Positions 8,742 through 51,426 of a stretch of DNA of 64,000 bases are shown here, in pieces; positions within the stretch are counted from its first letter, which is position 1, and each line of letters begins with the position of its first letter. The notes under the pieces were generated by a model that worked only from the letters and a program-made list of their open reading frames with translations, made no database searches and was not told the DNA's origin. The DNA lies in NCBI GenBank assembly GCA_018828385.1, contig JAHJVE010000003.1, positions 62,001 through 126,000 on the forward strand, written 5' to 3'. The position numbers were made by a program, and so were the translations under genes. Source of the DNA: Gammaproteobacteria bacterium (GTDB lineage Bacteria > Pseudomonadota > Gammaproteobacteria > Burkholderiales > Rhodocyclaceae).

Positions 8742-11330
8742 GTGCTTGAAGCCTATCGCGCCCATGTAGCAGAGCGTGCAGCCCTCGGTATCCCGCCGCT
8801 GCCCCTGTCCAAGCAACAGACCACCGAACTGGTGGCCCTGCTGAAGAATCCCCCTGCTGGCGAAGAAGCCGCGCTGGTTGAGTTGATCACCTACCGCGTG
8901 CCGGCAGGCGTTGATGATGCCGCCAAGGTCAAGGCCGAGTTCTTGGCCAAGGTCGCCAAGGGCGAAGAAGCCTGCGCCCTGATTTCCAATGTCAAGGCCA
9001 CCGAACTGCTCGGCACCATGCTCGGCGGTTACAACGTCAAGCCGCTGATTGACCTGCTGGGCGATGCAGCCTGCGGCGCCGTTGCTGCCGAGGGCCTGAA
9101 GAAGACCCTGCTCGTTTTCGATTTCTTCCACGATGTTGCCGAACTGGCCAAGGGCGGTAACGCCAATGCCAAGGCTGTCATGCAGTCGTGGGCCGACGGC
9201 GAGTGGTTCACCTCGCGTCCGGAAGTCCCGGCTTCGCAGAAGCTGACCGTTTTCAAGGTCACCGGCGAAACCAATACCGACGACCTGTCGCCGGCCCCGG
9301 ATGCCTGGTCGCGTCCCGATATCCCACTGCACGCACTGGCCATGCTGAAGAACCCGCGTCCGGGTATCGAAGCCGACGAACCGGGTACCCGCGGTCCGTT
9401 GAAACAACTGGAAAAGCTCGCTGCCAAGGGCAACCTGATCGCCTACGTCGGTGACGTGGTCGGTACCGGTTCCTCGCGCAAGTCCGCCACCAATTCCGTA
9501 CTGTGGTTCACCGGCGAAGACATCCCGTTCGTCCCGAACAAGCGTTTCGGTGGTTTCTGCCTCGGTTCCAAGATTGCTCCGATCTTCTTCAACACCATGG
9601 AAGATGCCGGCGCCCTGCCGATCGAAATCGATTGCAGCGCAATGGACATGGGCGACGAGATCGAACTGAAGGTCGATCAGGCCACCGGCAAGGTCACCGC
9701 CACCAAAAACGGTGCCGTGATCGCCGAATCGCAACTGAAGACCCTGGTGATCATGGACGAAGTCCGCGCTGGCGGCCGTATCCCCCTGATCATCGGTCGC
9801 GGCCTGACCACCAAGGCGCGTGAATTCCTCGGCCTGCCGCAATCCACGCTGTTCCGCCTGCCGCAAAACCCGGCCGACGACGGCAAGGGCTACTCGCTGG
9901 CCCAGAAGATGGTCGGCAAGGCATGCGGCGTGACCGGCATCCTGCCGGGCACCTACTGCGAGCCGAAGATGACCACCGTGGGTTCGCAAGACACCACCGG
10001 CCCGATGACCCGCGACGAACTGAAAGACCTGGCCTGCCTCGGTTTCTCCGCCGACCTGGTCATGCAGTCCTTCTGCCACACCGCCGCCTATCCGAAGCTG
10101 GTCGACGTCCGCATGCACCGCGAACTGCCGTCCTTCATCTCGACCCGTGGCGGCGTTGCGCTGCGTCCGGGCGACGGCGTCATCCACTCCTGGTTGAACC
10201 GCCTGCTGCTGCCGGATACCGTTGGTACCGGCGGTGACTCGCACACCCGTTTCCCGATCGGCATCTCCTTCCCGGCCGGTTCCGGTCTGGTCGCCTTTGC
10301 CGCCGCCACCGGCGTCATGCCGCTCGACATGCCGGAATCCGTGCTGGTCCGCTTCAAGGGCGAAATGCAACCGGGCATCACCCTGCGTGACCTGGTCAAC
10401 GCCATTCCGCTCTACGCCATCAAGGCCGGCCTGCTGACTGTCGAGAAGAAGGGCAAGATCAACGTCTTCTCTGGCCGCATCCTGGAAATAGAAGGTCTGC
10501 CGAACCTCAAGGTCGAACAAGCTTTCGAGCTCTCCGATGCTGCCGCCGAGCGTTCCGCTGCTGCCTGTGCCGTCGCCCTGAACAAGGAACCGATGGTCGA
10601 GTACATGCGTTCGAACATCACGCTGATGAAGTGGATGATTGCCGAAGGCTACGCCGATGCCCGCACCCTGAAGCGCCGCATCAACGCCATGGAAGACTGG
10701 ATCGCCAACGGCACGCTGCTCAAGGCTGACGCCAACGCCCAGTACGCCGCGGTCATCGAAATCGACCTGGCCGAAGTCACCGAGCCGATCCTGGCCTGCC
10801 CGAACGACCCGGACGACGTCAAGATCCTGTCCGAAGTCGCCGGCGCCAAGATCGATGAAGTCTTCATCGGCTCCTGCATGACCAACATCGGCCACTTCCG
10901 TGCCGCCGGCAAGGTCCTCGAAGGCAAGTCGGACATCCCGACCCGCCTGTGGATCGCTCCGCCGACCAAGATGGACGCGCTGATCCTGACCGAAGAAGGC
11001 TACTACGGCGTCCTCGGCAAGTCCGGTGCCCGCATGGAAATGCCGGGCTGCTCGCTGTGCATGGGCAACCAGGCACAGATCCGCAAGGGCTCCACCGCGA
11101 TCTCCACTTCCACCCGCAACTTCCCGAACCGCCTCGGCATCGACACCCAGGTCTATCTGGGTTCAGCCGAACTGGCCGCCATGTGCGCCCTGGCCGGCCG
11201 CATCGTGACCGTCGCCGAGTACATGGAGCAGATCAAGCTGGTGAACGCCAAGGCCGGTGAAGTCTATCGCTACATGAACTTCGACCAGATTCCGCAATTC
11301 GTTGAAATTGCAGCAGAAGTTCAGATGTAA
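8742..11330 (+). CDS. acnB: Bifunctional aconitate hydratase 2/2-methylisocitrate dehydratase
   Basis: 862 aa; [58 protein letters not shown]. The 3' end coincides with the island left junction. Confidence 0.97.
11268..11294 (+). repeat. Left direct repeat (attL-like core)
   Basis: CGCTACATGAACTTCGACCAGATTCCG, inside acnB codons for RYMNFDQIP. Confidence 0.92.
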
Positions 11331-11658: not shown

Positions 11659-13458
11659 TTATGTCTTGGCCTCGGTTTGCTCGATGCTATTCCAAAGATT
11701 GTGGACGTGAACCGTTGTGCCAGCTACGTTGAGTGAAGTCGGTATTGGTACAACCTCTGGCACTTGCCCGTACTGTTCATGTAGTTGTACATGGATATCT
11801 CGCAAGACGCGTTCCGAGGGTCCAATTTCCATCCGGGCGCGAGCAAACTGCGGCCAGACGGCCATGGCAAGATCAGGCGCGTTGGTCCTGACGCCATAAC
11901 CTTGCGTGCGGACAGTCGACCTTGAAATGGCGAAGAGGAAGATGTTCCGGACCGATTCGCGCCGTTTCTGCTTGAGCCGCAGGGATTGGTTGAGCGCAGA
12001 AATACCGCGCTCTTGAATCCACAACTTCACCTTCCCGGACCAGTCCATCAGCTCAGCTGAAAGGTTTGCGGCTTTGCTTCGGAGCTGTCGGACGTCGTTG
12101 GTGGAGTAATCCTGCCACTTCAATTGGAAGAGGCCAACGTCTCCAGTAAGCCGGTCATACACCACAGCATCAATGTCCGTGAGGATTGATCCCGCGCTAC
12201 GCAATCTTAGGTTGCCCGGGAAGCATGCATATCGCTTCCCCTGGAACATTCCATAGAGATGCGACCGCATCCAATCCTCACGATCGGCGGCGATCGCATG
12301 TTCAGTGCGCGAATCCAGCCATTGATGCTGAGTTTTGACTGCCGTGAATGAATTTCGGGTCAGACATGACACTGGCCGCAGGATAAAGCCGTTGCCCAGA
12401 TCAAAGAGCAAGGGGATCAGGGGAGTCGAATGATCAGCCAATTTCTTCGCCAGCTCCGATGTCATTGCCAACGCAGTGAAGGCAGAGCGAACGACTGGCC
12501 CAGGGCAACCGCTCATGAGGGAGATCGACTCTTCTAGCCCCGACATTGGCCCCCAGATGGTTAAGCTCTGAGGGACTGACACTTGGCTAAGTAGCTTTTT
12601 CGCGACCGAAACGCATCCGACATGCTTTGCATGAAGGCTGATGAGCGCCACACTCACGCTTGTAATGTCGGCACCGGTGATGGAACCAAGCTTTGCTTCG
12701 GGGTGAATGCCTGAGTCTTCGCGCCAAGCTGTCGCCAAGGCCAATGCCTCGGCCATGTAGTGCCTGTCAACCTCGATTCGGGCATCGTAGGCCACCATAA
12801 CGCCGCGCCCCGTGTCCCAAGTTCTAACTAACGGCTTGATGAGCTCTTCGATGTCGCTCCGAAGCCAGCGCTTGACCGGCGGGCCTGTCAAAGCATAGTA
12901 AGACCCTGGCATTCCAGGAAAGCGCAAAACATCCCGCATCGAAGCCACCTTCCAGCCAGCCCTCGACGACGGTAGTCGCTCCTCGGCATCCTTGAGGCGA
13001 TCCAACTGCATGAAGTCAGCAAACTGCGCCTTAGCGTCCTCGGTCATGCGGATCTGGAATTCGGCGCCATCCTTGGCGACTTCCGCGATGCCCCGCTCGC
13101 TCATGTCGGCCAGCCTCCGTAGCAGCGAAACCTTTCCTAACTCCTGCATGATTCCAACTGCGAAACCGCGCGAGCGCTGCGTGCTCTCCATTAGCGGGAA
13201 CGCGTCAGGCTGTTCTAGCGGCTCAAAGAGCTCGGCGATGGCTCTGTTCCATCCCCAATACATAAGATCGAGAGATTGCTGCCCCCCTTCTTTATCAGCG
13301 CTAGTGAGGTTGGTGTAAATGCCCCAGTAATCCATCGCACGGACTACTTCGATGAACAAGACGAAGCGGCCCATCCGGTCACTAGGAAGTTGTTTTAGGA
13401 CGGTCGCTAGATGGGTTTCGGCCAAATCTCTAAGCATTTGGGCGGTTGAGTCGGTCAT
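11659..13458 (-). CDS. Hypothetical protein with nuclease-like (NERD/Mrr-type) motif
   Basis: 599 aa; C-terminal ILTDIDAVVYDRLTGDVGLFQLKWQDY resembles the D...(E/Q)xK core of restriction-like nucleases. Confidence 0.6.
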   Translation of the reverse strand: MTDSTAQMLRDLAETHLATVLKQLPSDRMGRFVLFIEVVRAMDYWGIYTNLTSADKEGGQQSLDLMYWGWNRAIAELFEPLEQPDAFPLMESTQRSRGFAVGIMQELGKVSLLRRLADMSERGIAEVAKDGAEFQIRMTEDAKAQFADFMQLDRLKDAEERLPSSRAGWKVASMRDVLRFPGMPGSYYALTGPPVKRWLRSDIEELIKPLVRTWDTGRGVMVAYDARIEVDRHYMAEALALATAWREDSGIHPEAKLGSITGADITSVSVALISLHAKHVGCVSVAKKLLSQVSVPQSLTIWGPMSGLEESISLMSGCPGPVVRSAFTALAMTSELAKKLADHSTPLIPLLFDLGNGFILRPVSCLTRNSFTAVKTQHQWLDSRTEHAIAADREDWMRSHLYGMFQGKRYACFPGNLRLRSAGSILTDIDAVVYDRLTGDVGLFQLKWQDYSTNDVRQLRSKAANLSAELMDWSGKVKLWIQERGISALNQSLRLKQKRRESVRNIFLFAISRSTVRTQGYGVRTNAPDLAMAVWPQFARARMEIGPSERVLRDIHVQLHEQYGQVPEVVPIPTSLNVAGTTVHVHNLWNSIEQTEAKT

Positions 13459-13661: not shown

Positions 13662-14417
13662 TCATGGGGCTTGGGTATTCGATGTGGCGGCGAGATTGAA
13701 GTGATTGTCAATCAGATCAGCAAGTGCCTTGGCATCAAGAGACGACAGGCTGCGCGCTTCATTAAGAATTCGAATCCGGAGCACAGCGAGACGCATGATC
13801 GACTCCATTTGACCGCGCCCAAATTTCGCAACGGCCCTGACCCAAGCCTCGGCAATTGCCAGCGCGAGAATTCGATTTCCACCGATGCTTGGACGCTCGA
13901 TTATTTGAACGAACGCATCTTCGGTCAAGTCTCGAAGAAGGCCCCAACGATCATCGACGATAGATCCGCGGTCTGTGGCGCAAGCACGCAGCCAGAGTCG
14001 CTGAAAGGTGTTTCGGACCCCGCCGAGGTAGCGTTCCTTCGCATTGCCAAATCGCCAGCGCACGATGTCGGGAAACATGACAACACCGAAAAATGACCAT
14101 ACATCCTCACGCAATGCTTCACCGGGACTCAGAAATGGACAGTCGGCCAGCCACGCCGCTGCGTCTGCGTCAAAGCGTGCATGATCCGACTTTCCGGCGC
14201 CATCAAAGCCACAATCACGTGCCAGCAAGAGTATTCCACTGCGTATCGCTTCAAGTGAAGTCGGAGAAATCATGGTTCCGCCCACCGCAGCGAAGCGTAT
14301 GGAGTCAGGCAATCTGGTGGCGACAAACCCGCTCCATTCGGCTGGACTGGATCTGAGGAATTCGCCGAGCATCTGTTCGGCAGCGACGGTCGGCAGTCGC
14401 GGCAAGAGAATAGTCAC
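13662..14417 (-). CDS. Hypothetical protein of the MORC-Z1 cluster
   Basis: GTG start at 14417 overlaps the upstream TGA (GTGA), giving translational coupling; no recognised domain. Confidence 0.65.
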   Translation of the reverse strand: MTILLPRLPTVAAEQMLGEFLRSSPAEWSGFVATRLPDSIRFAAVGGTMISPTSLEAIRSGILLLARDCGFDGAGKSDHARFDADAAAWLADCPFLSPGEALREDVWSFFGVVMFPDIVRWRFGNAKERYLGGVRNTFQRLWLRACATDRGSIVDDRWGLLRDLTEDAFVQIIERPSIGGNRILALAIAEAWVRAVAKFGRGQMESIMRLAVLRIRILNEARSLSSLDAKALADLIDNHFNLAATSNTQAP

Positions 14418-15322
14418 GTTACCTCCCTTGTTTCGGCCAGCGCAAGAAAAGCGGAACGAAATTCTCCGGGACGGTTCTGCAACAGTGATCGGGTGAATCC
14501 GAAGTCGCGTCCGGGCCACGATTGTTGCAGCCACGCCGTCGCTTGGGCACCAAGTGTCCCGCTTTCATACGCGTCAATGGCGCCTTGGTCATCATGATCG
14601 GCAACGAAGCGTTCGCAGACCTGACTCATGATGTCAGCGAGGAGTGCCTGCAATGTGGGGCCATCCTGCTGCTCGAACCTCTCGATCAGCTGCTCGCTGT
14701 TCCGGTTGAGGAACAAGCGTATTGCTCCATGAAAGTCACGTGACCAGTCCTGTGGGGACCAGTGGAGATACCAAGGGGATTCTGCAGCCGGGATGTGTCC
14801 GAGAAGACGTTGAAAGTCGGTGACTTCGATCGGAAAGCGCGGCTCGACACCTTCGATCCGGATTCGCAACCGGTCCTGCCACAGGCGGTCTCCTGGACTT
14901 GATGGCGTGATCAACGAGGCGTTAGATGGTCCGCTGGTCACGATAATCTCGGTGAACAAATCAAGTACTGTTGACAGGCATTCTCCGGGAATTTCGATAG
15001 CAACGTGAATATTCCCGTTGCTTGCAGTCAGATCCTGAGAATCCACCTTGACCAGCTGTTGTGGCAATCGCCCAGCACCGGTCCCGATCTGTACGCGAAC
15101 GGCCATGCCAAGATCTCCGTTGTCCGCGGAAAGTTCTGTCATGGCCAGTGGCATGTCGACCCTGATGTGCCGATACATGGTGATGGTCGATGCAGCATCC
15201 CAATGGGGCAGATAGTCTTCAGCCGGGACCGATGGTCCGCCATTCAGTGAAACCTGCCAGCATGAAACCGTGGTCGACGCTTCTGAAAGGGTCAGGTAGG
15301 GGAAAGCAATCCGCCGATTCAT
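14414..15322 (-). CDS. Hypothetical protein of the MORC-Z1 cluster
   Basis: 302 aa; start overlaps the GHKL ATPase stop by 4 bp. Confidence 0.75.
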   Translation of the reverse strand: MNRRIAFPYLTLSEASTTVSCWQVSLNGGPSVPAEDYLPHWDAASTITMYRHIRVDMPLAMTELSADNGDLGMAVRVQIGTGAGRLPQQLVKVDSQDLTASNGNIHVAIEIPGECLSTVLDLFTEIIVTSGPSNASLITPSSPGDRLWQDRLRIRIEGVEPRFPIEVTDFQRLLGHIPAAESPWYLHWSPQDWSRDFHGAIRLFLNRNSEQLIERFEQQDGPTLQALLADIMSQVCERFVADHDDQGAIDAYESGTLGAQATAWLQQSWPGRDFGFTRSLLQNRPGEFRSAFLALAETREVT

Positions 15323-17163
15323 GCCTGACCTCCGGTAGAAATAGTTGCTTCAACGATTGCCGCGGCATCCGGTGGCATCCGAACGACGATTTCGAACGTG
15401 CCTTCGGTCCCATTCAGCTCCAGCCGGTCAGTCTTGCTCGATGGGGCGCCGTATGCGCCACGGATTCCAACGACTTGTGGCATCGATGCCATGCCGGCAA
15501 TCGTGTTCGCTGGAGCACCGTCAATTGCCACCGAAGCCTTTGCCGTCAGAATCAGTCCTGATTGCTGTGCATCCTGATGAACGTCAGCCCTGAAAACGGC
15601 TAAAATTTGTCCGTTTTCGGATTCCAGACGCATGAAGACCGGCTTGGAAACTCCCGCCCGCAGTGGTCGCTTTCCATTCGTGCTGCGGTCTTTGTGAACC
15701 GGACCGGCTCCTTCGCCATCAGGGCCCGCCAATGCGGCACCGAGTCTGCTGGCGACTTTTGCCAGAGGAGGCGTCGCCGAACTTTGGGGCGCGTGTCCTC
15801 GAGCTGCAGTCCCCATGTTGAACGCAATCTGCTTGAGTTCGCGAAGCGCAACGTTCACAAAGGTCTTGGCGTGCCCTTTGTGCAAGTTGTCGGGTATCCA
15901 GTCATCGTGAGCCGGCGGTTCGGAGTCTGCAAATGCACGTTCGACTTCTTCATCGCCGTCGACAACAAAGACGCCGGCCCATTCTATGCGTTCGTCCGGG
16001 AAAGACTGTCCCTCAAGGTATTTGACGACGAGCTTGACCGGTCGCATCAGTGCAATATGCCGTGATACCGGGGGAAACACAGATTCCCATTCCGGGATGT
16101 TTTCACGGGGGGCTTTCAGATTCTTCTCAATAGCCAGATTGCCAAGATGCTTCTGAGGGCGCTGGCAGACGATCTTGCTGAAATCCGAACTGTTCTTCTG
16201 TTCGGCATTTCTCAGCGCTTTAACGAAGAGGTGCAGGGGGGCCATTTCCTCTGGTTCGGGAATTGCGACGGGTTTGCCCTCCACTTCGATTCGGCAGGAG
16301 AAACGCTTCGCTGGCGGGGTGTCGTTCAGCATCCTTGGCCAGAAGTTCCAGAGAAGGGTTTCTACAATCTTTCGGCCGATCAATTCCGGACTCAGATCTT
16401 CGGTGTCGAAGTCGAGAATCATAATCGATGTTCCGGACCGGCCGTTCGGACGCTCGGGGAAGCCGAGGAGCGTGGCGGCCTTTGTTGCGTCGGCATCCAG
16501 CATGGGATCAACCACGCCATCGTCCGGGTCCGCATAACCCCACCAGTGTCGGCCGGTATAACGCCGACGCATTCCGTTTTCTGGGACTTCGTAGGATGAG
16601 CCGATATGGCAGCCGATCAGTCGCCTGGAATCAGGGGCTCCTCCTTGGACGAGCGAATCCACGATGATTGTGCTGCATCGGCTCACCCGATACAACGCGA
16701 CCTTGCCAAAACCGTACGTGCCACCGCCATGCGAGACGTTGCGTGGTGTGCCGATGTTCCGCAGAAAATCAATGAAATCGGTGCGGTATTCGTTCTCCGG
16801 AATCCGGTCTGCCCGGGTCGGTCCTCCCAGCCCGGATGTTCCGAAGTCGCATATTTCAAGGACAACCGGGTTTGCCCGTTCGAGAAACTGCTGCAATTGT
16901 TCCCTTGATTTCCTTTCCTCTGGAAGAGATGAAAAGAAATCGCGCCGCAGGGCCATCTGCTGTGTCTTGGACAATGTCCTGACACGGATGAATACCTCGG
17001 GTCCTGCGGAGCCTGTCGCCGCATCGGCAACGTTTTGAATTGCCTCCCGGATGACGGTCTGTACCGCATCTAGTGCAGGGGCTCCAAGCAGGCGACGAAA
17101 GTTTTCACCGATGTTTCCGGTGCTTCCGTAGGCTTCTGACTGCAGGCTTACCTTCCTCAACAT
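15319..17163 (-). CDS. GHKL (MutL/MORC/Hsp90-like) ATPase
   Basis: IREAIQNVADA (N-box), LEICDFGTSGLGGP (DxGxxG), GGGTYGFGKVALYRVSR (G-box). Confidence 0.85.
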   Translation of the reverse strand: MLRKVSLQSEAYGSTGNIGENFRRLLGAPALDAVQTVIREAIQNVADAATGSAGPEVFIRVRTLSKTQQMALRRDFFSSLPEERKSREQLQQFLERANPVVLEICDFGTSGLGGPTRADRIPENEYRTDFIDFLRNIGTPRNVSHGGGTYGFGKVALYRVSRCSTIIVDSLVQGGAPDSRRLIGCHIGSSYEVPENGMRRRYTGRHWWGYADPDDGVVDPMLDADATKAATLLGFPERPNGRSGTSIMILDFDTEDLSPELIGRKIVETLLWNFWPRMLNDTPPAKRFSCRIEVEGKPVAIPEPEEMAPLHLFVKALRNAEQKNSSDFSKIVCQRPQKHLGNLAIEKNLKAPRENIPEWESVFPPVSRHIALMRPVKLVVKYLEGQSFPDERIEWAGVFVVDGDEEVERAFADSEPPAHDDWIPDNLHKGHAKTFVNVALRELKQIAFNMGTAARGHAPQSSATPPLAKVASRLGAALAGPDGEGAGPVHKDRSTNGKRPLRAGVSKPVFMRLESENGQILAVFRADVHQDAQQSGLILTAKASVAIDGAPANTIAGMASMPQVVGIRGAYGAPSSKTDRLELNGTEGTFEIVVRMPPDAAAIVEATISTGGQA

Positions 17164-18173
17164 GAAGCAAACTCCGTATCCATGGAGGCAGCAGCTCGCT
17201 CGGCAAGGCGATGCTCTTTGGCGCAGGCAAGGTCAACCTTGTATACCACGTCGGAAACTCCAGCCGGTACGCTCCCATCGACCATGGTTTGCGGAACTAT
17301 CCGAGGAAATCCGTCGCCAACCTCATACAGATTCTCGTTTTCAAGTCGATACGCCGTTACATTCCATGCCGGATCGTCAACGTTCGAACAGCCTGCCGAA
17401 TTGATCAATTGAGCGAGGGCAACAGGATCATCTGCTTTGGCGAGCGCGCTGCGCCCCAACGAAGAGATGGAGAGCAGTCCGCCGGCAACTGCTTCAAGGG
17501 TGAGATGCAGCAGATGCAGCGTGCCGCCGGATGGTGGCAGAAGCTGATCGGTGCCGTGGATGGTGATGACCGAGTTGTCGGCTTGGCTCGTGGTTTTTAC
17601 TTCAAGCGAGGAGTCGCCATTGCGGAAATCATGGCGATCGCCAGCAGGCCCTCTCCATGCCTTCCAACCGCATGGAGCACATGCAAGCAGGCGGTTAAGA
17701 TAAAAAAGTTCGCCGACAAGTCCGACAATTTCGGTCTGTGTTACTGCCGAGGACTGATTGCGTTCGAGTAGCTCGCGGAAGTCCGAGATGGTTGTGGCAG
17801 CTGCCTCAAGCCCATCCATCCCGCCAGCAATGCGAGTCAGGATTTCTTCCACGACCTCCCCGAAAACCAGCTCGAGATTGCGCGACAGGCACGTCAGGTC
17901 TACAAAGCGCGAACTGCGACCGGCATGAAGATAGTTCGAAAAGATGACTTTCAGAAAACGTGTCCCGGCGAGGATGCTTGACCCCGTGGCCGGTGGTACC
18001 GGAACAAGAATCCGGGCTTCGCTGAAGTTCCCCAGTGCATAGCGAACCGGTCCGGCCGGGGTGGATATATCGGTACGCAGGGTTGGTGCCTGTAGGTCGC
18101 TTGCTTCGCCCTTTCCGGCCCGCAGCAGAGCCCATGCGTCGGCTGGGGACATCGCATTGTGGTCATGCGACAT
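17157..18173 (-). CDS. PD-(D/E)XK motif protein
   Basis: VGELFYLNRLL...GDRHDFRNGDSSLEVKTTS, i.e. E...D...ExK. ATG at 18173 (MSHDHNAMSPADAW) preferred. Confidence 0.82.
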   Translation of the reverse strand: MSHDHNAMSPADAWALLRAGKGEASDLQAPTLRTDISTPAGPVRYALGNFSEARILVPVPPATGSSILAGTRFLKVIFSNYLHAGRSSRFVDLTCLSRNLELVFGEVVEEILTRIAGGMDGLEAAATTISDFRELLERNQSSAVTQTEIVGLVGELFYLNRLLACAPCGWKAWRGPAGDRHDFRNGDSSLEVKTTSQADNSVITIHGTDQLLPPSGGTLHLLHLTLEAVAGGLLSISSLGRSALAKADDPVALAQLINSAGCSNVDDPAWNVTAYRLENENLYEVGDGFPRIVPQTMVDGSVPAGVSDVVYKVDLACAKEHRLAERAAASMDTEFASC

Positions 18174-20793
18174 CAGCTGCCTCCGCCTGCTCCATTTCGT
18201 CTGCTGCAATTTCGTCCAGTTCGTCTGCGGAAAGCGGGCGCAGCTCGATAGACACAAAATTGCCACCTTCGGTTACGGATCCTGGAAAGACCACCCCAAA
18301 ACCGAGAACATCCATCTCGGCATCCAGTGCGGTTCGCGTTTTGCTCGGATGCTGAGGCTCGGATCGGTGGTCGATCGGATAGAGCAGCAGCAAGGGGACA
18401 TCGCCAACATGCTCTGCCCTTTTGATCTTTGCATCCTGCCAGCCCAGCGAGGAATCAATTTTGAAAGGACTGTCAAATGCGATGTCGGTAGTAGACATCA
18501 GGGCCTTGATGTCGGCATTGCCTTCAATATCCGCCAGTCGTGCGCGAGTCACTGTCTTGACCCTGTCGATTGTGCCCAGATCCAACTGGGAAAGCCTGCC
18601 TTGCCCAGATTCGACAATGCCGACATTCCAGCTGTCGAGTCTGGTATCTGCCTGTTCGAGGAAAGAGCAGAACAGATCTGGTGCGAGATCGGCATGGCTT
18701 GCGTCGACGTGATAGGTCTTGAAGAATCGGACGATCGATGCGCGACTGACATTCCGCCAGAGGAGCCTTTCACCGACATCCTTGGCCCGGTTGCCCAATG
18801 TTTCCTCCCGGCTTACCAGTTCGGCAGCCGCACGCCAGTTGGCTTCGAGAACGGCCTTGTCCTTGTGGGGGAAACGGAAGGTTTGGCGATGTGTTCCCCA
18901 GTAACTGATTGCACAGCGAGTGGCATGTTTCATCTTGGTTGCACTCGTGATTGCCATGCCCGGAATCGTTCGTATTCTTACCGCAATGTCCATTGGTGAC
19001 AGTTCCCGCAGCCTGTATTGCTCGATGTCTTCTCGTATTTCGGATTCGATTGCTGCAAGAGAACGAAACTTCGACCGGAGGTCGTCCGGCATCCAAATTC
19101 TTGGCAGATCTTCGTAGCCGCCTCGATATCCGAACCATCGCCCCATCTGCAACAGGGTGTCGTACTGGGAGCTTGTACGAAGAAAGTAGCTTACGGTCAG
19201 ACCTTCGAGTGTCAGGCCCCGGGCCAGGATTGACCCGCCGACGACCACATAGGTCTTTGGCGGGCCGTCATAGTCGATCCGGTCGTCGCTGGATCCGTTT
19301 TCAACCGGAACCTCCAGTGCCGCCAAAACCTCGGGAATCCTTGTAAGGATTTCATTGGGTTCGATTTTTCGCGCTGTCGTGATGTCGGCAGGGAGGCGGC
19401 CCTGCTCCGACTCCCATACTGAAATCAGTTTCTTCCCTAGTCTGGTCTGCGGATCTGCGAATTGTGCCCGGTTCGTATTCAGCCAGCTCTCGACGAGTGC
19501 GGCAAGTCTTTCATGCATCACCACATAAGCCGAGGTATGGATGAGCATTGTCATGTGTTGTCCAGCCTGACCGCGCGCCCGTCTTGCTGCACAACATGCA
19601 AGGTAGTACAGCAGGGCATTTTCCAAGCTGGGTACTAGTTCCGGGTGAAAATTGTCCCGATGCTGTCGGGACGAAGGCTGAAGTTGTTCCACTTCGGTGT
19701 CTTCCACCGTGCGGATCATGTCTAGCCCTTCTTCTTCGGGCAATGGGCTGGAAGCGTTGGCAGGGGGTCTTCCAAACAGCTTTTCGGTTCCAAAGTAATT
19801 GCCAGATTTTGGCAATGCCGTGATGAAATCCCGGGGGTAAAGATCGTCGATCTCCTGTCCTTCAATCCGGTAAGGATTGATCAGGACGTTCGCGAACGGT
19901 GTTGCCGTGTAGCCAACGTAGCAAGCGGTAGGAAGCAGGCTCAACAGTTCCCGAATTCGCTCGTTGATTGCCGTCATGTCCAGTTCGCCGCGCGCCGAAT
20001 TGACGCTTGCCTGATCGCATTCGTCATCGATAACCAGTATCCGAAGCTGCCGCATGACTGCGGGAAGTGTTCTTTCGATTGCCGTTCGCAGTTCACTCAA
20101 CGGTGAAACGTTCTTCTTGATGATGGCAATCTGCGCCTTGTTGCTATGTGCGAGAAAGCCCCCGTGAGGCGGAGCACGGAAATCACCATCCTGACTGGTT
20201 GGAGTCAGGACTTGCCAGTCCACCGGATGGCGCTGGACGAGGTCGCCGATCATTCGCGATTGTGTCTGGTAACGGAGCTTGTTGGTCAAACCGGCCAAGA
20301 TTATGACCGTGTTGTACCCGGCATCGAGCGCCTTGGCCATGACTGCGGTCATGTTCGCCGTCTTTCCCGACTGCACATGGCCGACCACCAGTCCTCGGCC
20401 AGAAAAAATCCTCGAAGACGGGTTGTTGAGCAGGGATACCACCTCGCTGGAGGCTTGGTTCAGCGAGGCGATTTCGTCATCACCCCAGTGCTTTGAATTT
20501 TTCAGGAAATCCCGAAATGCAGGCCAGTGCTTGTCGCCGACGGTTGGGCCGAAATACCATGGGGTTCGACGCCGGATGATCGAATGGACGTGAAGAATTT
20601 CGATCTTTTCGAATTCTGCCGCTACTATTTCCGAGGCAGCTGCGAGTTCTGCTCTGTTCTTGGCTGACCAGCCAGGTACAAGCAAATCCATTTCTTCGCA
20701 GACGAGACGCGTTGCCATCTCGATATTGCCAGTACCCGGCAATTCCTTGCGAATTCTGCTGACTAGTGCCTGTATCTCTGGCTTTTTCATCAT
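18163..20793 (-). CDS. Z1 domain superfamily II helicase-like protein
   Basis: Walker A VVGHVQSGKTANMTAVMAKALD; DExD-like ILVIDDECDQASV; VVVGGSILARGLTLEGLTVSYFLR. ATG at 20793 has a GGAGAGG ribosome site. Confidence 0.87.
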   Translation of the reverse strand: MMKKPEIQALVSRIRKELPGTGNIEMATRLVCEEMDLLVPGWSAKNRAELAAASEIVAAEFEKIEILHVHSIIRRRTPWYFGPTVGDKHWPAFRDFLKNSKHWGDDEIASLNQASSEVVSLLNNPSSRIFSGRGLVVGHVQSGKTANMTAVMAKALDAGYNTVIILAGLTNKLRYQTQSRMIGDLVQRHPVDWQVLTPTSQDGDFRAPPHGGFLAHSNKAQIAIIKKNVSPLSELRTAIERTLPAVMRQLRILVIDDECDQASVNSARGELDMTAINERIRELLSLLPTACYVGYTATPFANVLINPYRIEGQEIDDLYPRDFITALPKSGNYFGTEKLFGRPPANASSPLPEEEGLDMIRTVEDTEVEQLQPSSRQHRDNFHPELVPSLENALLYYLACCAARRARGQAGQHMTMLIHTSAYVVMHERLAALVESWLNTNRAQFADPQTRLGKKLISVWESEQGRLPADITTARKIEPNEILTRIPEVLAALEVPVENGSSDDRIDYDGPPKTYVVVGGSILARGLTLEGLTVSYFLRTSSQYDTLLQMGRWFGYRGGYEDLPRIWMPDDLRSKFRSLAAIESEIREDIEQYRLRELSPMDIAVRIRTIPGMAITSATKMKHATRCAISYWGTHRQTFRFPHKDKAVLEANWRAAAELVSREETLGNRAKDVGERLLWRNVSRASIVRFFKTYHVDASHADLAPDLFCSFLEQADTRLDSWNVGIVESGQGRLSQLDLGTIDRVKTVTRARLADIEGNADIKALMSTTDIAFDSPFKIDSSLGWQDAKIKRAEHVGDVPLLLLYPIDHRSEPQHPSKTRTALDAEMDVLGFGVVFPGSVTEGGNFVSIELRPLSADELDEIAADEMEQAEAADVA

Positions 20794-21142
20794 GCCCCTC
20801 TCCAATGATCATGTAATTGTCGATTGCACCATGATTCTGGCGTTTGAAAACTATGCCCGATCAATTCCTGAGAGTGATACGGATCCTTCACTGGTGCCGA
20901 TGACACCTTGTAAGACCGCATGGAGATTGAGAGGGAAAGGAAACAGGCCGATGGGCAATGCAAAATGCAATTATGCTAAAGGTGTCAGATCCATGCAATC
21001 GCGTTATTGCAGCAGTTCGATTGCCGATTTTCCTTGAGCAGAGCGCGATTTCCGGTTAGCAATGCAGGCTGAAAAATATTCGGTCAACCAACAGATGACA
21101 AATTCTGACTACAGTCAGTGCTCCGGTAACAGAGCCATGTAT

Positions 21143-22681
21143 TCAGGAGAGCAACCTTTTCACCTTGGCTGCAATTTCTGCTGCAAGGAGTGGCGGGACT
21201 GCGTTTCCGACCTGATGAAACTGCTCGGTCCTGTTTCCCTGGAAGAAATAGTTGTCAGGGAAGGTTTGCAGACGCGCGGCTTCGCGAACCGTCAGACTTC
21301 GACATTGCGCAGCATCGGGATGGATGAAGTAGTGTCCGTCCTTAGAGATGTGACTGGTGATCGTCGTTGACGGTCGATTCCCGACCTGGACACGGAACCG
21401 GTCGGAGAAGTTTCCAGACTCCCAATTAGCATGTTTCGGGGCCAGCCCCGGAAGGCTGAATTCGTTATGGCCCTTTGGCGATCGCTTCTCAATGGTGGCA
21501 AATGTTGCGGCAAAAACGTATCTGCGGAGATCCTCGGACATGTGGCCCCGACTTTCGTGGTTGAGGATCACTGGAAGTGCTGGGTCACGCAGGCGGAACA
21601 GCAGGTCATTGGAAGTTTCCATCCGGGTCGGTGGTTTGGGGATGCGGAGTGCCCCGGAATCAACCTTGACCAACAAACCCGGAATGGCCTGAAGCAATTC
21701 CGCCGACAGCGTCGTCATGCCTGCAGCAATTGCATGTCGGGAAAGATCGAGGCAATGGCTGGACACAACCTCTGCCCAAGCCTCCTTCGAGTCGGGTTGT
21801 CGGGTGAGTTTGCTTCGCAGTTTTGGCAAATCGCCAATGGCATCAAGGACGGAAATCTTCTTTCGAGGGGAGAGTGGTTGCGTTCTGCCAGAAATGTCGC
21901 TGCGAACGCCGAGCAGAATCACACGATGTCGTGCCTGCGGAATGCCGTGCTCTTCAGCGTGGACAACGAAGTCGAAGGGATCGATGCTGTCGATATCCAT
22001 GTCTTCGGTGAATGTTGTAGTGCTCGTCAGCGAATGAATTCGATAGGTGGTCTGAGTGCCATTAGCCATGGCGAGTGCGGCCGAGGGGTTGACCAGATCG
22101 GTCAGTATGTCCTGAAAAATCTGGCGATTACCCACCCTGGACGAAAGAATGCCTTTAACGTTTTCCATTACGAACACGGCGGGGCGTGTCTTCTGGAGCA
22201 CCCGCAGGTATTCGCGGTAAAGGAAGTGCCGCTTGTCGTCTTCAGGCCGATAGTCTGCCTTGCCACGATTTCTCGAACGGCCTACCAGCGAATAGGCCTG
22301 GCAGGGCGGGCCGCCTATTAGGACGCAATCCTCGCCGGGTTTCAGGCGCTCGTCGATTGCTTTGTCCAGAAGTCGGTCGCCCTCGGACGAGCCCAAAGTG
22401 ATATTGAGCGTTTCCTCGCTTGCCTTGTCCCAGAGTTTCCGGGTGTTTTCGGAATTCCACGGTAGCGTCGAGACACCACGGCAGAAATCGTAATAGGCCT
22501 GCATGCCTGATCCGGAGGCCCTGAGATGACGGTAATAGCTTCTCAGCCGAAGCGTTTGGTGTGCCGCCGGGTTCATTTCGGCTGACACCAGAATCCGGAA
22601 GACTTGGCCGTCATCAAGCCCGGCAAAGCCTTCGCCCAGTCCACCCGGCCCGGAGAAAAGGTCAATTACCGGAATACTCAT
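21143..22681 (-). CDS. dcm: DNA (cytosine-5-)-methyltransferase
   Basis: IDLFSGPGGLGEGF (motif I), GGPPCQAYSLVGRSRN (IV), VMENVKGIL (VI), QARHRVILLGVR (VIII), QVGNAVPPLLA (X). Confidence 0.95.
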   Translation of the reverse strand: MSIPVIDLFSGPGGLGEGFAGLDDGQVFRILVSAEMNPAAHQTLRLRSYYRHLRASGSGMQAYYDFCRGVSTLPWNSENTRKLWDKASEETLNITLGSSEGDRLLDKAIDERLKPGEDCVLIGGPPCQAYSLVGRSRNRGKADYRPEDDKRHFLYREYLRVLQKTRPAVFVMENVKGILSSRVGNRQIFQDILTDLVNPSAALAMANGTQTTYRIHSLTSTTTFTEDMDIDSIDPFDFVVHAEEHGIPQARHRVILLGVRSDISGRTQPLSPRKKISVLDAIGDLPKLRSKLTRQPDSKEAWAEVVSSHCLDLSRHAIAAGMTTLSAELLQAIPGLLVKVDSGALRIPKPPTRMETSNDLLFRLRDPALPVILNHESRGHMSEDLRRYVFAATFATIEKRSPKGHNEFSLPGLAPKHANWESGNFSDRFRVQVGNRPSTTITSHISKDGHYFIHPDAAQCRSLTVREAARLQTFPDNYFFQGNRTEQFHQVGNAVPPLLAAEIAAKVKRLLS

Positions 22682-22728
22682 TCGGATACGTCTTTCGGGG
22701 TTGTCCGCTTGGCACTCCGGCTGGAATA

Positions 22729-23196
22729 ATGACCGGTATGACAGATGTGGTTACGCCAGCAGTACGGTCGCGCATGATGTCCGGGATCCGTGGCAAGGAT
22801 ACGCGGCCGGAAATGGCTGTCCGACGTTTTCTGCATCGAGCCGGATTGCGTTTTCGGTTGCATGACAGGAGTCTGCCCGGTGCTCCTGATCTGGTTTTTC
22901 CGCGCCATGGTGCGGTGGTGTTCGTTCACGGTTGTTACTGGCATCGACACGAGGGCTGCAAGTATGCCTCGACACCGGCTAGCAATGTTGAATTCTGGCA
23001 AAGAAAATTTGCCGGCAATGTCCGGCGCGACCGCGATACCGTTCATATGCTGATTAAATCCGGCTGGCGGGTATTTATCCTTTGGGAGTGTGCATTTCGT
23101 TACCCAGAGTTCGACGTAATGCTGGCTTGGCTGCCCGATGCAATTCGGTTGGGTAGCGAAGAATTAACGGAATGGCCTACTCATCCCTCGGCATGA
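22729..23196 (+). CDS. vsr: Very short patch repair endonuclease
   Basis: RSRMMSGIRGKDTRPEMAVRRFLHRAGLRFRLHDRSLPGAPDLVFPRHGAVVFVHGCYWHRHEGC; divergent from dcm. Confidence 0.93.
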   Translation: MTGMTDVVTPAVRSRMMSGIRGKDTRPEMAVRRFLHRAGLRFRLHDRSLPGAPDLVFPRHGAVVFVHGCYWHRHEGCKYASTPASNVEFWQRKFAGNVRRDRDTVHMLIKSGWRVFILWECAFRYPEFDVMLAWLPDAIRLGSEELTEWPTHPSA

Positions 23197-25114: not shown

Positions 25115-25597
25115 TCAGATCGGTAGGGTGTTGCCAGATTTAGCCTCAAGTAATAGTTCTTCGTCGGTTACCAGGAGCTCGGCAATTACGTTGTCCAGGT
25201 TGCTCGCTTGGTATGCATTCTTGAAGCGGCGACTATTGCAAAGTTGCAGTGCGAAGATTCGGCAGATGTAACGGACGTCATCGTTCCAAGGAACTCTTCC
25301 TTTATTCATTCGGCGAACCGACTCGAATTGAACTCCCAGCGCACGGCGCAATCCCCAGTGAGCGGCATCACAAAAGTCGACGTCCATTTTTTCCGCCAGA
25401 ATCTCGATCTGGTCGTATAGCAGCCAGTCCTCTGCGGATTTTTTGTCGAATGAAAGCTTGATGAGCGGCTTTCTCATACAAGCCAATGTCATCCAGTCAA
25501 TTTGGAGGAAAAATGCCGGGGGTTTCATCCCGCACAATGGAAGGATGTCTTTTTCATCCATGGGCTTGGTCGGGATAGTCAGAGCTTCTTTCTTCAT
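25115..25597 (-). CDS. Hypothetical protein of the mobile module
   Basis: MKKEALTIPTKPMDEKDILPLCGMKPPAFFLQIDWM...; overlaps the end of the integrase gene. Confidence 0.55.
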   Translation of the reverse strand: MKKEALTIPTKPMDEKDILPLCGMKPPAFFLQIDWMTLACMRKPLIKLSFDKKSAEDWLLYDQIEILAEKMDVDFCDAAHWGLRRALGVQFESVRRMNKGRVPWNDDVRYICRIFALQLCNSRRFKNAYQASNLDNVIAELLVTDEELLLEAKSGNTLPI

Positions 25598-26648
25598 TGA
25601 TATTTTCCTTGTCATTAAGGGATGGTGCAGTGATAGAAGGGACGGATTTAGGGCGAAGTTGGTGTCCAACGCTGCCGCAGTACATGCCGGTCGCTGATTC
25701 GCGGTAATGGCCTGCCTCTAGGGAAACGGCGAGCATTGCCTTTTTGTGTTCCAGCCTGTCTGTAGGCAGGATTCCGTGGTTCTTTATGGGGGCTGCTACA
25801 CCGGCGTAGTAAGCGTATTCATCCTGTAGAAATCCGTGACGGAGTCCGTGCGCCGTTACACCCAGTTCTTCCCTAGTGGCGCCTAGCTGACCCATCAAGT
25901 AGTAAAAATGGGATTGGGCCTGGCGCCATGTCTTATCAGGCCAGCGCATTTGGGCATTTAGCTGCTTGCCGACAATTTCCTTGGCTCGATCAACGATTTC
26001 CCGTTGCCGTTCGGTACGGATCGGGATCATTCGATGCTTCCCACCTTTGGTGCCGTCGGTGATGTAGAGGTGATCTTGGCCTAGTGCGGTTGCTCGCCAA
26101 GGACGCAGCTCGAGTGACTCCTTTGCACGAAGACCAAAGTAGCGTTGCAACTGGAGGAGGGCAGCGAGGCGTGGGTCAAGCTGGCCGGCATTTTGAATGA
26201 ACTTGTCCACATCGATTCCCTGTGCTTCCCACGACAAGTCTTCGGTGGCTGCGGTTTTCCGGACGAGATGCTCACGGCCGCCGGCATAAACCCCGATGTC
26301 CTCGATCATTCCTTCTTTGTCGATCCATCTGCAGAAAGAACGCAAGTTCGAAAACAAGCCGTGAATGGACTTCGCGGCCAGTCCTTTTTCCATCCAATGG
26401 GTGAATACTGCCTGCACATGCTTCGGTTTCAGATGAGTCGGGCTTTCCAGGCGATATCCGAGTTGGCTAAGCTGGGCAAATATCAGCCGCAGGTTGCCGC
26501 GACGCTCGCGGCGGGTTTTCCGGCTGCTGTCTCGCGGAATGTCGCGAAGGCGAGAGTGATTTTTCTGATTGTTGTGATTGATAATCCGATCCAACTCATC
26601 CCTGAAACGCTTGGGTAATAGTTGGTCCGCAAGGGAGGTTCTACTCAT
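25554..26648 (-). CDS. Integrase domain-containing tyrosine recombinase
   Basis: LQRYFGLRAKESLELRPW; TAHGLRHGFLQDEYAYYAG (HxxR); SLEAGHYRESATGMYCG (H...Y). ATG at 26648 with upstream GGAGGG. Confidence 0.82.
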   Translation of the reverse strand: MSRTSLADQLLPKRFRDELDRIINHNNQKNHSRLRDIPRDSSRKTRRERRGNLRLIFAQLSQLGYRLESPTHLKPKHVQAVFTHWMEKGLAAKSIHGLFSNLRSFCRWIDKEGMIEDIGVYAGGREHLVRKTAATEDLSWEAQGIDVDKFIQNAGQLDPRLAALLQLQRYFGLRAKESLELRPWRATALGQDHLYITDGTKGGKHRMIPIRTERQREIVDRAKEIVGKQLNAQMRWPDKTWRQAQSHFYYLMGQLGATREELGVTAHGLRHGFLQDEYAYYAGVAAPIKNHGILPTDRLEHKKAMLAVSLEAGHYRESATGMYCGSVGHQLRPKSVPSITAPSLNDKENINEERSSDYPDQAHG

Positions 26649-26760
26649 TTCCGTCCCTCCCTGACATCCATTAAAACTTTGTTCTGGTGAAAAGCAGGTT
26701 TTAAAAACTGCACGTATCCCAGTAATGGTGCGGGAAGTGATGTATGTCTGGTTTTTCCGT

Positions 26761-27579
26761 TCATTTGTTTGAATTAGGCGAGAATGTGGGCAAAGACGTG
26801 TCCTGTTGTGGCAAGCGGCCCAGCGCCGCCAACGCGGAAGCGATTCCAGCTTTCGCATCGCCAAACGATTCGGCTTGTTGTTTCTGCTTTTGCACATCAG
26901 AAATGCGAGATGCCTTGCGATTGGCGGCCGCGATTTGACGCTCAATTTCCTTTTGGACCAGCCCCGGGACTGGCTCCTTGTTTCGCTCTTCAACGACCTT
27001 AATGGCATTGGCGATCTGTGCTGGTTGGTACATCAACTCGAGCTGAGTCGCGCGTTCTGGGTCTGTAGGAGTAAAGGTCACGATGCCGCTTGGGCGCCGA
27101 ATCCGTATTTTTTCTGCAGCAGAAGAAATTGGATTTGCTGCTGCTGTTGCAGTTGGCAGGCAATGTTCCTGTTTTAAAAGGGATTGCGATTCTTGCCTCG
27201 GCGGAGTCTGGTCAGGCTCAAGCCAAGGAGCTGCTTTCAGCACTGCGTTGCCCAAAGCACTTGAACTAATTTTTAGAAATTCTCTTTTGGCGATCTGGAC
27301 GCCATGCCCGCGAAACGTATGGAAGCGGAACCAGTCGGCAATAAAGAATTGGAATCGATCAAAATCACCGACCAGAAGTTTCTCTCCACACAACGTCTTG
27401 ATTCCTGTTTGAAGTGCAGCAGGATCCAAACCGAGTGTTGCCGCCAGCGGTCGGAGGGGGATTTCGGCAACTCCGATCAAGTTCGTGTAGCGCCCACCCC
27501 AGAATCCCATTCCAAGAATGAGCTTGATTTCGGGTAGCAAGCCGGAGACGCGCGGCCAGTCGAGCAGATTGGTCGGCAT
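26761..27579 (-). CDS. Hypothetical protein of the mobile module, possible wHTH
   Basis: 272 aa; MPTNLLDWPRVSGLLPEIKLILGMGFWGGRYTNLIGVAEIPLRPLAATLGLDPAALQTGIKTL. Confidence 0.55.
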   Translation of the reverse strand: MPTNLLDWPRVSGLLPEIKLILGMGFWGGRYTNLIGVAEIPLRPLAATLGLDPAALQTGIKTLCGEKLLVGDFDRFQFFIADWFRFHTFRGHGVQIAKREFLKISSSALGNAVLKAAPWLEPDQTPPRQESQSLLKQEHCLPTATAAANPISSAAEKIRIRRPSGIVTFTPTDPERATQLELMYQPAQIANAIKVVEERNKEPVPGLVQKEIERQIAAANRKASRISDVQKQKQQAESFGDAKAGIASALAALGRLPQQDTSLPTFSPNSNK

Positions 27580-31724: not shown

Positions 31725-32246
31725 ATCGACCAGAGAATATCGACACCCACCGCATAACCACGCACAAGCCTCTGGTGTGCCCATCAGTGCTTTAGGAGCA
31801 TCGATGAAAGGCAGCTTTGCCCTTCACGCAGCGGCAGGATCGTGCCCATACCTGCCTGATGACAAATAAAAGTCACCGGGCAGCTTAATGAACATAAAGC
31901 TGCCGCTAAGGCATTTCAACTGAGTGCCTCTTGGTCGACCAATCCGGCCGTTCAATTCGAAGCTCGTATATGGCAGCAAAGGATCGCTTACCTGCCGCTC
32001 AACTGGGAGTAGTGAACGGCAGATTCGTTCTCGGGTAAACGTAAACGTCCGACACTGTCCTTCCTGACGCAAATTTCTTGGGCAGAGGCGGCTTCGCAGG
32101 CAGTGTATGGAGGGTGGCGGGACGGTCTTACTCACCGGCACACCTGCAGACCTCAGTCCGTCGCCACTTTCCCCTATGAGATTTACCATTTGCATACTGC
32201 GCAGGATAGAATGAAATTTATGTAATCACATAATTTCTTGTGCCCG

Positions 32247-33764: not shown

Positions 33765-33797
33765 CAGTAAGAACTTTTATTAATTGGAGGCTGGGTC

Positions 33798-34616
33798 ATG
33801 GGGTTTGCAAAATACCAAGAAGACATCGTGAGTCGGTACGTCGGCGATTTCGTGATGCGTGCCACTCAGTCGCCAGTTTCGCCACCCAAAGCCGCAACCC
33901 CGAATACCAAAAATCAATCTGATCAAAGGACAAAGAAAATGAGCAGTCTCAAGAAATTTGCTGTCGCCACGCCACGGCCTCTACCCGTGATCGTCTTGGC
34001 TGACGCGAGCGGCAGCATGGGGGAGAGCGGCAAGATTGAGGCGCTCAACGCTGCGATGAAGGACATGGTCTCGACTTTCTCCAAGGAAAGTCGCCTGCGC
34101 GCCGAGATCCAAGTGGGCTTGATCACCTTCGGCGGTAAGGCACAGATGCACCTACCGTTGGTTGCGGCACACAGCGTCGCTGGATTCGCGGAATTGAAGG
34201 CTGAAGGTGTGACGCCGATGGGTGCTGCATTTGACCTCGCCCGTCAGTTGCTGGAGGACAAGGATCGCATCCCCTCCCGAGCCTACCGCCCCGTTTTGAT
34301 TCTTTTGTCTGATGGGCAACCGACGGACGACTGGGAGGCTCCCTTCAAGGCTCTTTGCGATTCCGAGCGGGCACAGAAAGCAACCCGACTTGCAATGGCA
34401 ATTGGTCCAGATGCCGACGAAGCAATGCTGAGGGATTTTGCAAACGACGCAGAAGCGCCTATTTTCAAGGCCCACAACGCCCGGGACATCCATCGGTTCT
34501 TCCGTGCCGTGACCATGAGCGTTAGCACTCGCACTGCAAGCCAAAATCCAGATATCTCAACCGTCTTTGTTGTCCCGCCGCCGGATGACGACGCACTGGA
34601 CCTCGACTTCCAATGA
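33798..34616 (+). CDS. TerY-like von Willebrand factor A protein
   Basis: MIDAS DASGSMGESGKIEALN; LILLSDGQPTDDWEAPFKAL. Confidence 0.9.
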   Translation: MGFAKYQEDIVSRYVGDFVMRATQSPVSPPKAATPNTKNQSDQRTKKMSSLKKFAVATPRPLPVIVLADASGSMGESGKIEALNAAMKDMVSTFSKESRLRAEIQVGLITFGGKAQMHLPLVAAHSVAGFAELKAEGVTPMGAAFDLARQLLEDKDRIPSRAYRPVLILLSDGQPTDDWEAPFKALCDSERAQKATRLAMAIGPDADEAMLRDFANDAEAPIFKAHNARDIHRFFRAVTMSVSTRTASQNPDISTVFVVPPPDDDALDLDFQ

Positions 34617-36741: not shown

Positions 36742-36748
36742 GTCAACG

Positions 36749-41552: not shown

Positions 41553-41553
41553 T

Positions 41554-51399: not shown

Positions 51400-51426
51400 C
51401 GCTACATGAACTTCGACCAGATTCCG
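51400..51426 (+). repeat. Right direct repeat (attR-like core)
   Basis: Identical 27-mer. Confidence 0.92.

What the first reader, a model, noticed from the sequence alone, without database searches (positions are those of the whole stretch)
13662..23196. MORC/GHKL ATPase - Z1 helicase - PD-(D/E)XK - Dcm - Vsr cluster, a MutL/MORC-type restriction system
Minus-strand order: dcm, Z1 helicase, PD-(D/E)XK protein, GHKL ATPase, two unknown proteins, with overlapping stop/start codons from Z1 onward; vsr divergent. This matches the class of restriction-modification-like loci predicted from comparative genomics in which prokaryotic MORC-like ATPases associate with Z1 helicases. The two unknown ORFs (13662-14417, 14414-15322) are integral by translational coupling and uncharacterised.
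Basis: partly seen in the sequence, partly recalled or inferred. Interest (0 to 1): 0.62.

Follow-up and report, generated by a model that had tools for sequence, protein, structure and literature searches.

The report
Modular paraMORC–Z1 restriction system in genomic island
A bacterial mobile island carries a predicted DNA-restriction (anti-phage) system in which five tightly linked genes travel together as one machine, while the DNA-marking gene that tells self from foreign is always present but is freely swapped with an otherwise different defence system, hinting that the cutting machine may have no DNA-sequence preference of its own.

Summary
On the minus strand lie dcm, a Z1 helicase, a DUF4420 PD-(D/E)XK protein, a GHKL ATPase, U2 and U1. 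Stop/start overlaps run from Z1 to U1, and vsr is divergent. It is a real, widespread system: 75 of 83 fetched loci from several phyla carry Z1–DUF4420–GHKL–U2–U1. In an even 398-genome sample, U2 and U1 occur only in the 3 genomes with this cluster. Dcm is present in 49/49 well-flanked loci and Vsr in 45/49.

The class was predicted in 2008 (Iyer et al.). The GHKL protein is a paraMORC2, not a MORC: it has EPPxH and lacks the MORC motif. Its cousin MZA uses a true MORC and AIPR instead of paraMORC2, U2 and U1. U1 is a diverged DUF6339 (all-helical). U2 is an Ig-like sandwich plus helices.

New here: the Dcm(–Vsr) cassette is exchanged between the two core types and between similar cores, while no core segment swaps with it. 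I therefore propose an exchangeable self-marking and recognition cassette plus a sequence-blind effector core. Restriction, methylation motif and trigger are untested. The cluster sits in a 40.1-kb island with 27-bp direct repeats at the 3' end of acnB.

The parts
22738..23196 (+). vsr, very-short-patch-type endonuclease, divergent from dcm (ORF open from 22561)
   Evidence: TIGR00632 138 bits over cut-off, PF03852; catalytic D and both H present
21143..22681 (-). dcm, C5-cytosine methyltransferase (best PADLOC model DrmMII)
   Evidence: PF00145 1.6e-42, TIGR00675 over cut-off, PADLOC DrmMII 2.7e-92; a Dcm is present in 49/49 well-flanked loci
18163..20793 (-). Z1-domain SF2 helicase/ATPase (MzaC homologue, below the MzaC equivalog cut-off)
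   Evidence: PF10593 4.4e-64, MzaC 3.5e-101 at 340 of 1500 bits; Walker A, DDECD, DTLLQMGRWFG conserved
17157..18173 (-). DUF4420 PD-(D/E)XK protein, predicted nuclease (MzaD homologue, below cut-off)
   Evidence: PF14390 6.5e-41, MzaD 1.1e-13; E-D-ExK conserved in 78 homologues
15319..17163 (-). GHKL ATPase of paraMORC2 type with C-terminal extension
   Evidence: GHKL motifs conserved; EPPxH in 79/83 and MORC motif in 1/83 of all aligned rows, 26/27 and 0/27 in alignment A10; PDC-M33A 1.3e-12
14414..15322 (-). U2: Ig-like beta-sandwich plus helical C-terminal domain, predicted adaptor/scaffold subunit
   Evidence: no Pfam/PADLOC family in 68 homologues above noise; AF2 pLDDT 90.6; Foldseek best hits are generic Ig/Fn3-like sandwiches
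13662..14417 (-). U1: diverged DUF6339 protein, all-helical, with an invariant W/R/N/Q/E/D set
   Evidence: PF19866 in 37/58 homologues, best 1.8e-18, window itself 0.0059 below cut-off; PDC-M33C models match 10, 3 and 1 of 58 homologues; AF2 pLDDT 95.2; no solved fold match
11659..13458 (-). 599-aa protein with a D-x-D...QLKxQ motif (PD-(D/E)XK-like), possible accessory nuclease of Dcm-Vsr cassettes
   Evidence: homologues near core clusters L049, L053, L054, L070, L073 and MZA-type locus L142, and next to vsr on plasmids L005, L006; no family hit
11268..11294 (.). left 27-bp direct repeat at the acnB 3' end (attL-like)
   Evidence: identical to 51400-51426; empty sites in same-genus genomes
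51400..51426 (.). right 27-bp direct repeat followed by the displaced original acnB 3' end (attR-like)
25554..27008 (-). tyrosine integrase of the island (one of two)
   Evidence: PF12835 6.5e-11

Best explanation
This is a paraMORC2-type Z1 restriction-modification system, a sister of MZA, made of two separable parts. Part 1 is a self-marking cassette: Dcm methylates a motif in host DNA, and Vsr acts at the same motif. Part 2 is a five-protein effector core: Z1 is an ATP-driven DNA translocase, DUF4420 is the nuclease, paraMORC2 is an ATP-gated MutL-like clamp, and U2 (Ig-like adaptor) and U1 (DUF6339) complete the complex in place of the AIPR protein of MZA. The core carries no motif reader matched to its Dcm. 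Invading DNA is flagged through the cassette, either by Dcm bound at an unmethylated site (as PglX/BrxX does in BREX) or by a Vsr nick, and the core then loads, translocates and cuts. Shown: composition, order, obligate linkage of U1/U2, obligate Dcm, intact active sites, exchange of Dcm(-Vsr) without exchange of any core segment. Inferred: restriction activity, subunit roles, the trigger. My odds: belongs to the 2008-predicted restriction class 0.9; acts against phage or foreign DNA 0.8; specificity lies in the cassette rather than in the core 0.6.
For: Five-gene core in 75/83 loci with conserved order. U2 and U1 only where the cluster is, 3/398 genomes. Dcm in 49/49 and Vsr in 45/49 well-flanked loci, against 120/200 genomes with any Dcm and 49/200 with any Vsr. 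Pairwise distances among the core proteins correlate at 0.72-0.89, core versus Dcm 0.17-0.24, core versus Dcm TRD 0.22-0.29, core versus Vsr 0.12-0.20, Dcm versus Vsr 0.49. In the Z1 tree MZA-type and this type separate with one change; in the Dcm tree 10-11 changes are needed, at least 8 of them forced by starred branches. MZA-type locus L138 and this-type L070 share Dcm at 88% and Vsr at 82% with Z1 at 30%. L019 and L023 share the core at 70-84% with Dcm 23% and Vsr 41%, without a swapped window in any core protein; L019 and L063 are the reverse, core 33-46% with Dcm 83%. Precedent: BREX site binding by the methyltransferase is required for defence and methylation (PMC11842806 abstract); a Z1 N-protein couples ATP hydrolysis to cleavage in CglI (PMC4267653).
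Against: No experiment on any member was found. The swapped Dcms could share one target motif despite 16-37% TRD identity; their motifs are unknown. Four well-flanked loci have Dcm without Vsr (L009, L061, L076, L080), so Vsr is not strictly needed in cis. Related loci on rhizobial plasmids lack DUF4420 (L002, L003) and one haloarchaeal locus has the trio without Z1 or DUF4420, so the core is not absolutely fixed. The core may sense something else (DNA ends, replication forks), with Dcm only protecting.
Confidence: 0.6

Rival explanations
1. Classical restriction-modification: one core subunit (U2, U1 or DUF4420) reads the same motif that Dcm methylates, as R.CglI does with its B3 domain.
For: Known for the Z1 systems studied biochemically (PMC4267653); Dcm is obligate here.
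Against: No core protein or 40-residue window changes when Dcm is swapped; U2 distances follow Dcm TRD no better than Z1 distances do (0.29 versus 0.28); no B3 or other DNA-reading domain found by sequence or by fold.
Confidence: 0.2
2. Dcm-Vsr is only a neighbour: the core is an abortive-infection or DNA-damage-sensing defence without methylation-based discrimination.
For: Core and Dcm do not co-evolve; the MZA and PDC-M33 models as listed say nothing of methylation.
Against: Dcm present in 49/49 well-flanked loci and in 14 of 15 MZA-type loci of this set; a mere neighbour would be lost sometimes.
Confidence: 0.15
3. A m5C-dependent mismatch-repair module: Vsr, paraMORC2, helicase and nuclease repair T:G mismatches, not foreign DNA.
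For: MutL-like GHKL plus Vsr resembles very-short-patch repair; Iyer et al. mention possible repair recruitment.
Against: Patchy distribution (3/398 genomes), residence in a mobile island with other conflict genes, Dcm turnover, and close kinship of modules with MZA.
Confidence: 0.05

Closest known systems
paraMORC2/MORC–Z1 helicase–NRE–Dcm–Vsr predicted R-M operons (Iyer, Abhiman, Aravind 2008, PMC2292703)
   Same: GHKL ATPase with ExxxH, Z1 SF2 helicase with the DThhQXuRhFG motif, E-D-ExK nuclease, Dcm, Vsr
   Different: The main text read here does not describe U2 or DUF6339 as components, nor exchange of Dcm-Vsr between cores (its figures, with uncharacterised X and Z domains, were not readable)
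MZA (MzaA-E) anti-phage system (from memory: Gao et al. 2020; models NF041932-NF041935)
   Same: Homologous Z1 (MzaC) and DUF4420 (MzaD); usually next to Dcm and Vsr in the loci seen here
   Different: MZA has a true MORC GHKL (MzaB) and AIPR (MzaE) in the order MORC-Z1-DUF4420-AIPR; here paraMORC2-U2-DUF6339 follow DUF4420 and AIPR is absent
PDC-M33 (PADLOC phage-defence candidate)
   Same: PDC-M33A matches the GHKL protein, PDC-M33C matches some U1 homologues
   Different: No model matched U2; the window's own U1 does not reach the models; no Z1/DUF4420 membership known to me
CglI / NgoAVII (PMC4267653)
   Same: Z1-domain N-protein helicase/ATPase, C5-methyltransferase
   Different: Nuclease is PLD with a B3 DNA-reading domain; no GHKL, U2 or U1
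DISARM
   Same: The Dcm best matches DrmMII
   Different: no DrmA, DrmB or DrmC in the cluster

Membership tests
paraMORC2-type R-M class of Iyer 2008 | GHKL with conserved ATP-binding motifs | tested here: met
paraMORC2-type R-M class of Iyer 2008 | ExxxH motif (paraMORC2) and no MORC S5 motif | tested here: met
   EPPxH 26/27, MORC motif 0/27
paraMORC2-type R-M class of Iyer 2008 | S5-fold domain after the GHKL domain | not tested
   the GHKL protein was not folded; structure jobs went to U1 and U2
paraMORC2-type R-M class of Iyer 2008 | SFII helicase with DThhQXuRhFG, E-D-ExK nuclease, Dcm, Vsr in the neighbourhood | tested here: met
paraMORC2-type R-M class of Iyer 2008 | restriction of unmethylated DNA | not testable with these tools
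   needs plaque assays and methylome
MZA | MzaC Z1 protein at equivalog level | tested here: not met
   homologous, 340 bits against a cut-off of 1500; note that the MZA-type loci used here also score below the equivalog cut-offs
MZA | MzaB MORC-type GHKL | tested here: not met
   no MzaB hit; MORC motif absent; profile comparison with MzaB-type GHKL not significant
MZA | MzaE AIPR | tested here: not met
   no AIPR in the window cluster or within any five-gene core; one locus (L061) has a separate AIPR about 4 kb from its core; U1/U2 not related to AIPR by hhalign
MZA | MzaA | not tested
   no MzaA hit among the window proteins scanned, but the model was not examined directly
PDC-M33 | PDC-M33A and PDC-M33C proteins | tested here: inconclusive
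   A matched (1.3e-12); C only in homologues of U1
CglI/NgoAVII-type | PLD nuclease with B3 domain | tested here: not met
   no PLD or B3 family among the cluster proteins
DISARM | DrmA, DrmB and DrmC core | tested here: not met
   only the Dcm matches a DISARM model

The most novel reading that the evidence does not exclude
A restriction system whose effector core is sequence-blind and plugs into interchangeable Dcm-Vsr cassettes that it shares with a different core (MZA): Vsr, usually seen as a repair enzyme, would be the motif-specific nickase that marks unmethylated invader DNA for a MutL-like paraMORC2/Z1/DUF4420 machine, with DUF6339 and an Ig-like protein as obligate new subunits.
Probability: 0.22. 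Interest if true: 0.75.

Novelty: new variant of a known kind. Interest (0 to 1): 0.5.

Why it matters
It turns a 2008 prediction into a defined seven-gene system with a natural swap experiment. If the core has no motif of its own, its target could be reset by exchanging one methyltransferase cassette, and Vsr next to defence loci would need a second look as a restriction component. It also names two obligate proteins (U2 and DUF6339) that no characterised system explains, and identifies which GHKL (MORC or paraMORC2) goes with which partner set, which is useful for annotating defence islands and for the prokaryotic origin of eukaryotic MORC proteins.

Tried and rejected
MORC membership of the GHKL protein: rejected by motif. 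MZA membership: rejected by missing AIPR and MORC. U2 or U1 as a split AIPR: hhalign not significant. Solved relatives by sequence for Z1, DUF4420, GHKL, U1, U2: none. Fold matches: U1 none (best E 0.22); U2 only generic Ig-like sandwiches with low TM-scores. A core specificity segment co-swapped with Dcm: not found. Relatives on viral contigs: none confirmed. Literature on DUF6339, PDC-M33 and MZA mechanism: nothing usable in the held library.
Full report
OBSERVATION. The window has, on the minus strand, dcm (21143-22681), a Z1-domain SF2 helicase (18163-20793), a DUF4420 PD-(D/E)XK protein (17157-18173), a GHKL ATPase (15319-17163), U2 (14414-15322) and U1 (13662-14417), with vsr divergent on the plus strand. 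Junctions from Z1 to U1 overlap by 11, 7, 4 and 4 nt. Active-site motifs of all enzymes are intact and conserved in homologues. The finding's coordinates and description are confirmed.

CONSERVATION. A profile of the GHKL protein found 474 relatives in 84,980 genomes; the best 78 loci were kept. With own HMMs, 75 of 83 loci (including plasmid loci and the window) have all five genes Z1-DUF4420-GHKL-U2-U1 in this order, in Pseudomonadota, Cyanobacteriota, Acidobacteriota, Planctomycetota, Verrucomicrobiota, Nitrospinota and others. That set was chosen by GHKL similarity, so I also ran an even phylum survey: Z1 occurs in 26 of 399 genomes. Fetching their surroundings showed mostly MORC-Z1-DUF4420-AIPR clusters (MZA type), a few MORC-Z1-DUF4420 clusters without AIPR, and three clusters of the window's type, including the window. 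U2 and U1 profiles hit exactly those three genomes and no other of 398. The two unknown proteins are therefore integral and, in this sample, specific to the system.

WHAT THE SUBUNITS ARE. The GHKL protein is a paraMORC2 by the criteria of Iyer et al.: ExxxH present (26/27), MORC motif absent (0/27). The GHKL of the MZA-type loci shows the opposite (0/18 and 18/18) and matches MzaB, with MzaC, MzaD and MzaE beside it. U1 is a diverged DUF6339 (37/58 homologues match PF19866) and overlaps PADLOC candidate PDC-M33C, as the GHKL protein does PDC-M33A. AlphaFold gives U1 as a confident all-helical fold (pLDDT 95.2) without a solved relative; its invariant residues are mostly W, R, N, Q, E and D, suggesting a functional surface rather than a passive scaffold. 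U2 is a beta-sandwich plus helical domain (pLDDT 90.6) with generic Ig-like matches, most consistent with an adaptor.

METHYLATION PARTNERS. Among 49 five-gene loci with at least 3.5 kb on both sides, 49 have dcm and 45 have vsr, on either side and in many orientations. In 200 phylum genomes, 120 have any Dcm and 49 any Vsr. Dcm is thus effectively obligate, and Vsr strongly associated.

EXCHANGE. Pairwise distances of the five core proteins correlate tightly (0.72-0.89), but not with Dcm (0.17-0.24), its target-recognition region (0.22-0.29) or Vsr (0.12-0.20). In a Z1 tree this type and the MZA type are separated by one change; in the Dcm tree the two types need 10-11 changes, at least 8 forced by well-supported branches. 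Some long branches in that tree are unsure, but the close cross-type pairs are not. Examples: MZA-type L138 and this-type L070 have Dcm 88%, Vsr 82%, Z1 30% identical. Two Pseudomonas loci, L019 and L023, have core proteins 70-84% identical, Dcm 23%, Vsr 41%, and no core window behaves as if swapped; L019 and L063 are the mirror image. Hence Dcm-Vsr behaves as a plug-in cassette and I find no core segment that could be its matched motif reader. The limits are that the methylation motifs are unknown and that distance correlations ignore tree structure; the paired examples do not depend on that.

MECHANISM. Best supported: Dcm marks host sites; on invading DNA the cassette (Dcm at an unmethylated site, or a Vsr nick) recruits a sequence-blind core, in which Z1 translocates, paraMORC2 clamps DNA and DUF4420 cuts. 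The BREX methyltransferase as site reader (PMC11842806 abstract) is a precedent for the first version. For the second, Caulobacter VsrA causes an SOS response when its methyltransferase is deleted (PMC12907096), which its authors read as accidental breaks during repair. Neither is tested here. Loci with Dcm but no Vsr (4/49) favour the first version.

MOBILITY. The cluster lies in a 40,132-bp island between two copies of CGCTACATGAACTTCGACCAGATTCCG (11268-11294 and 51400-51426). The island supplies a new acnB 3' end and the original 3' end remains at the right edge; several same-genus genomes show the empty site. GC is 0.47-0.57 inside against about 0.58-0.64 outside.

VERDICT. An intact member of a predicted but uncharacterised restriction class, a distinct variant alongside MZA. 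The class is known; the obligate U2/DUF6339 pair and the cassette exchange are what I consider new, subject to the limits of the literature held here.

Noticed in passing
window 11268-51426: Complete 40.1-kb integrative island in the 3' end of acnB with 27-bp direct repeats, own replacement of the acnB C-terminus and empty sites in same-genus genomes.
   Followed up: yes
same-genus genomes G164, G168, G177, G180: Extra partial acnB copies near acnB, suggesting repeated insertion and decay of islands at this hotspot.
   Followed up: no
window 32238-45746: Second putative conflict cluster on the island: sigma-54 activator, VWA, PP2C, protein kinase, SF1-like helicase, AAA_5 ATPase and a DUF2357 protein.
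   Followed up: partly
window 46175-47095: SMEK-domain protein (PF21941, 5e-34).
   Followed up: no
window 11659-13458: 599-aa protein with a PD-(D/E)XK-like D-x-D...QLK motif that recurs near Dcm-Vsr cassettes of both core types; no family model.
   Followed up: partly
L007, L077, L081, L084: A second GHKL protein of the same broad family next to dcm in haloarchaeal and cyanobacterial loci; L007 has GHKL-U2-DUF6339 without Z1 or DUF4420.
   Followed up: no
L002 and L003 (rhizobial plasmids): Z1-GHKL-U2-DUF6339 without DUF4420, beside an AAA ATPase/UvrD pair and a DEAD helicase-EcoRII_N-MORC-HNH cluster.
   Followed up: no
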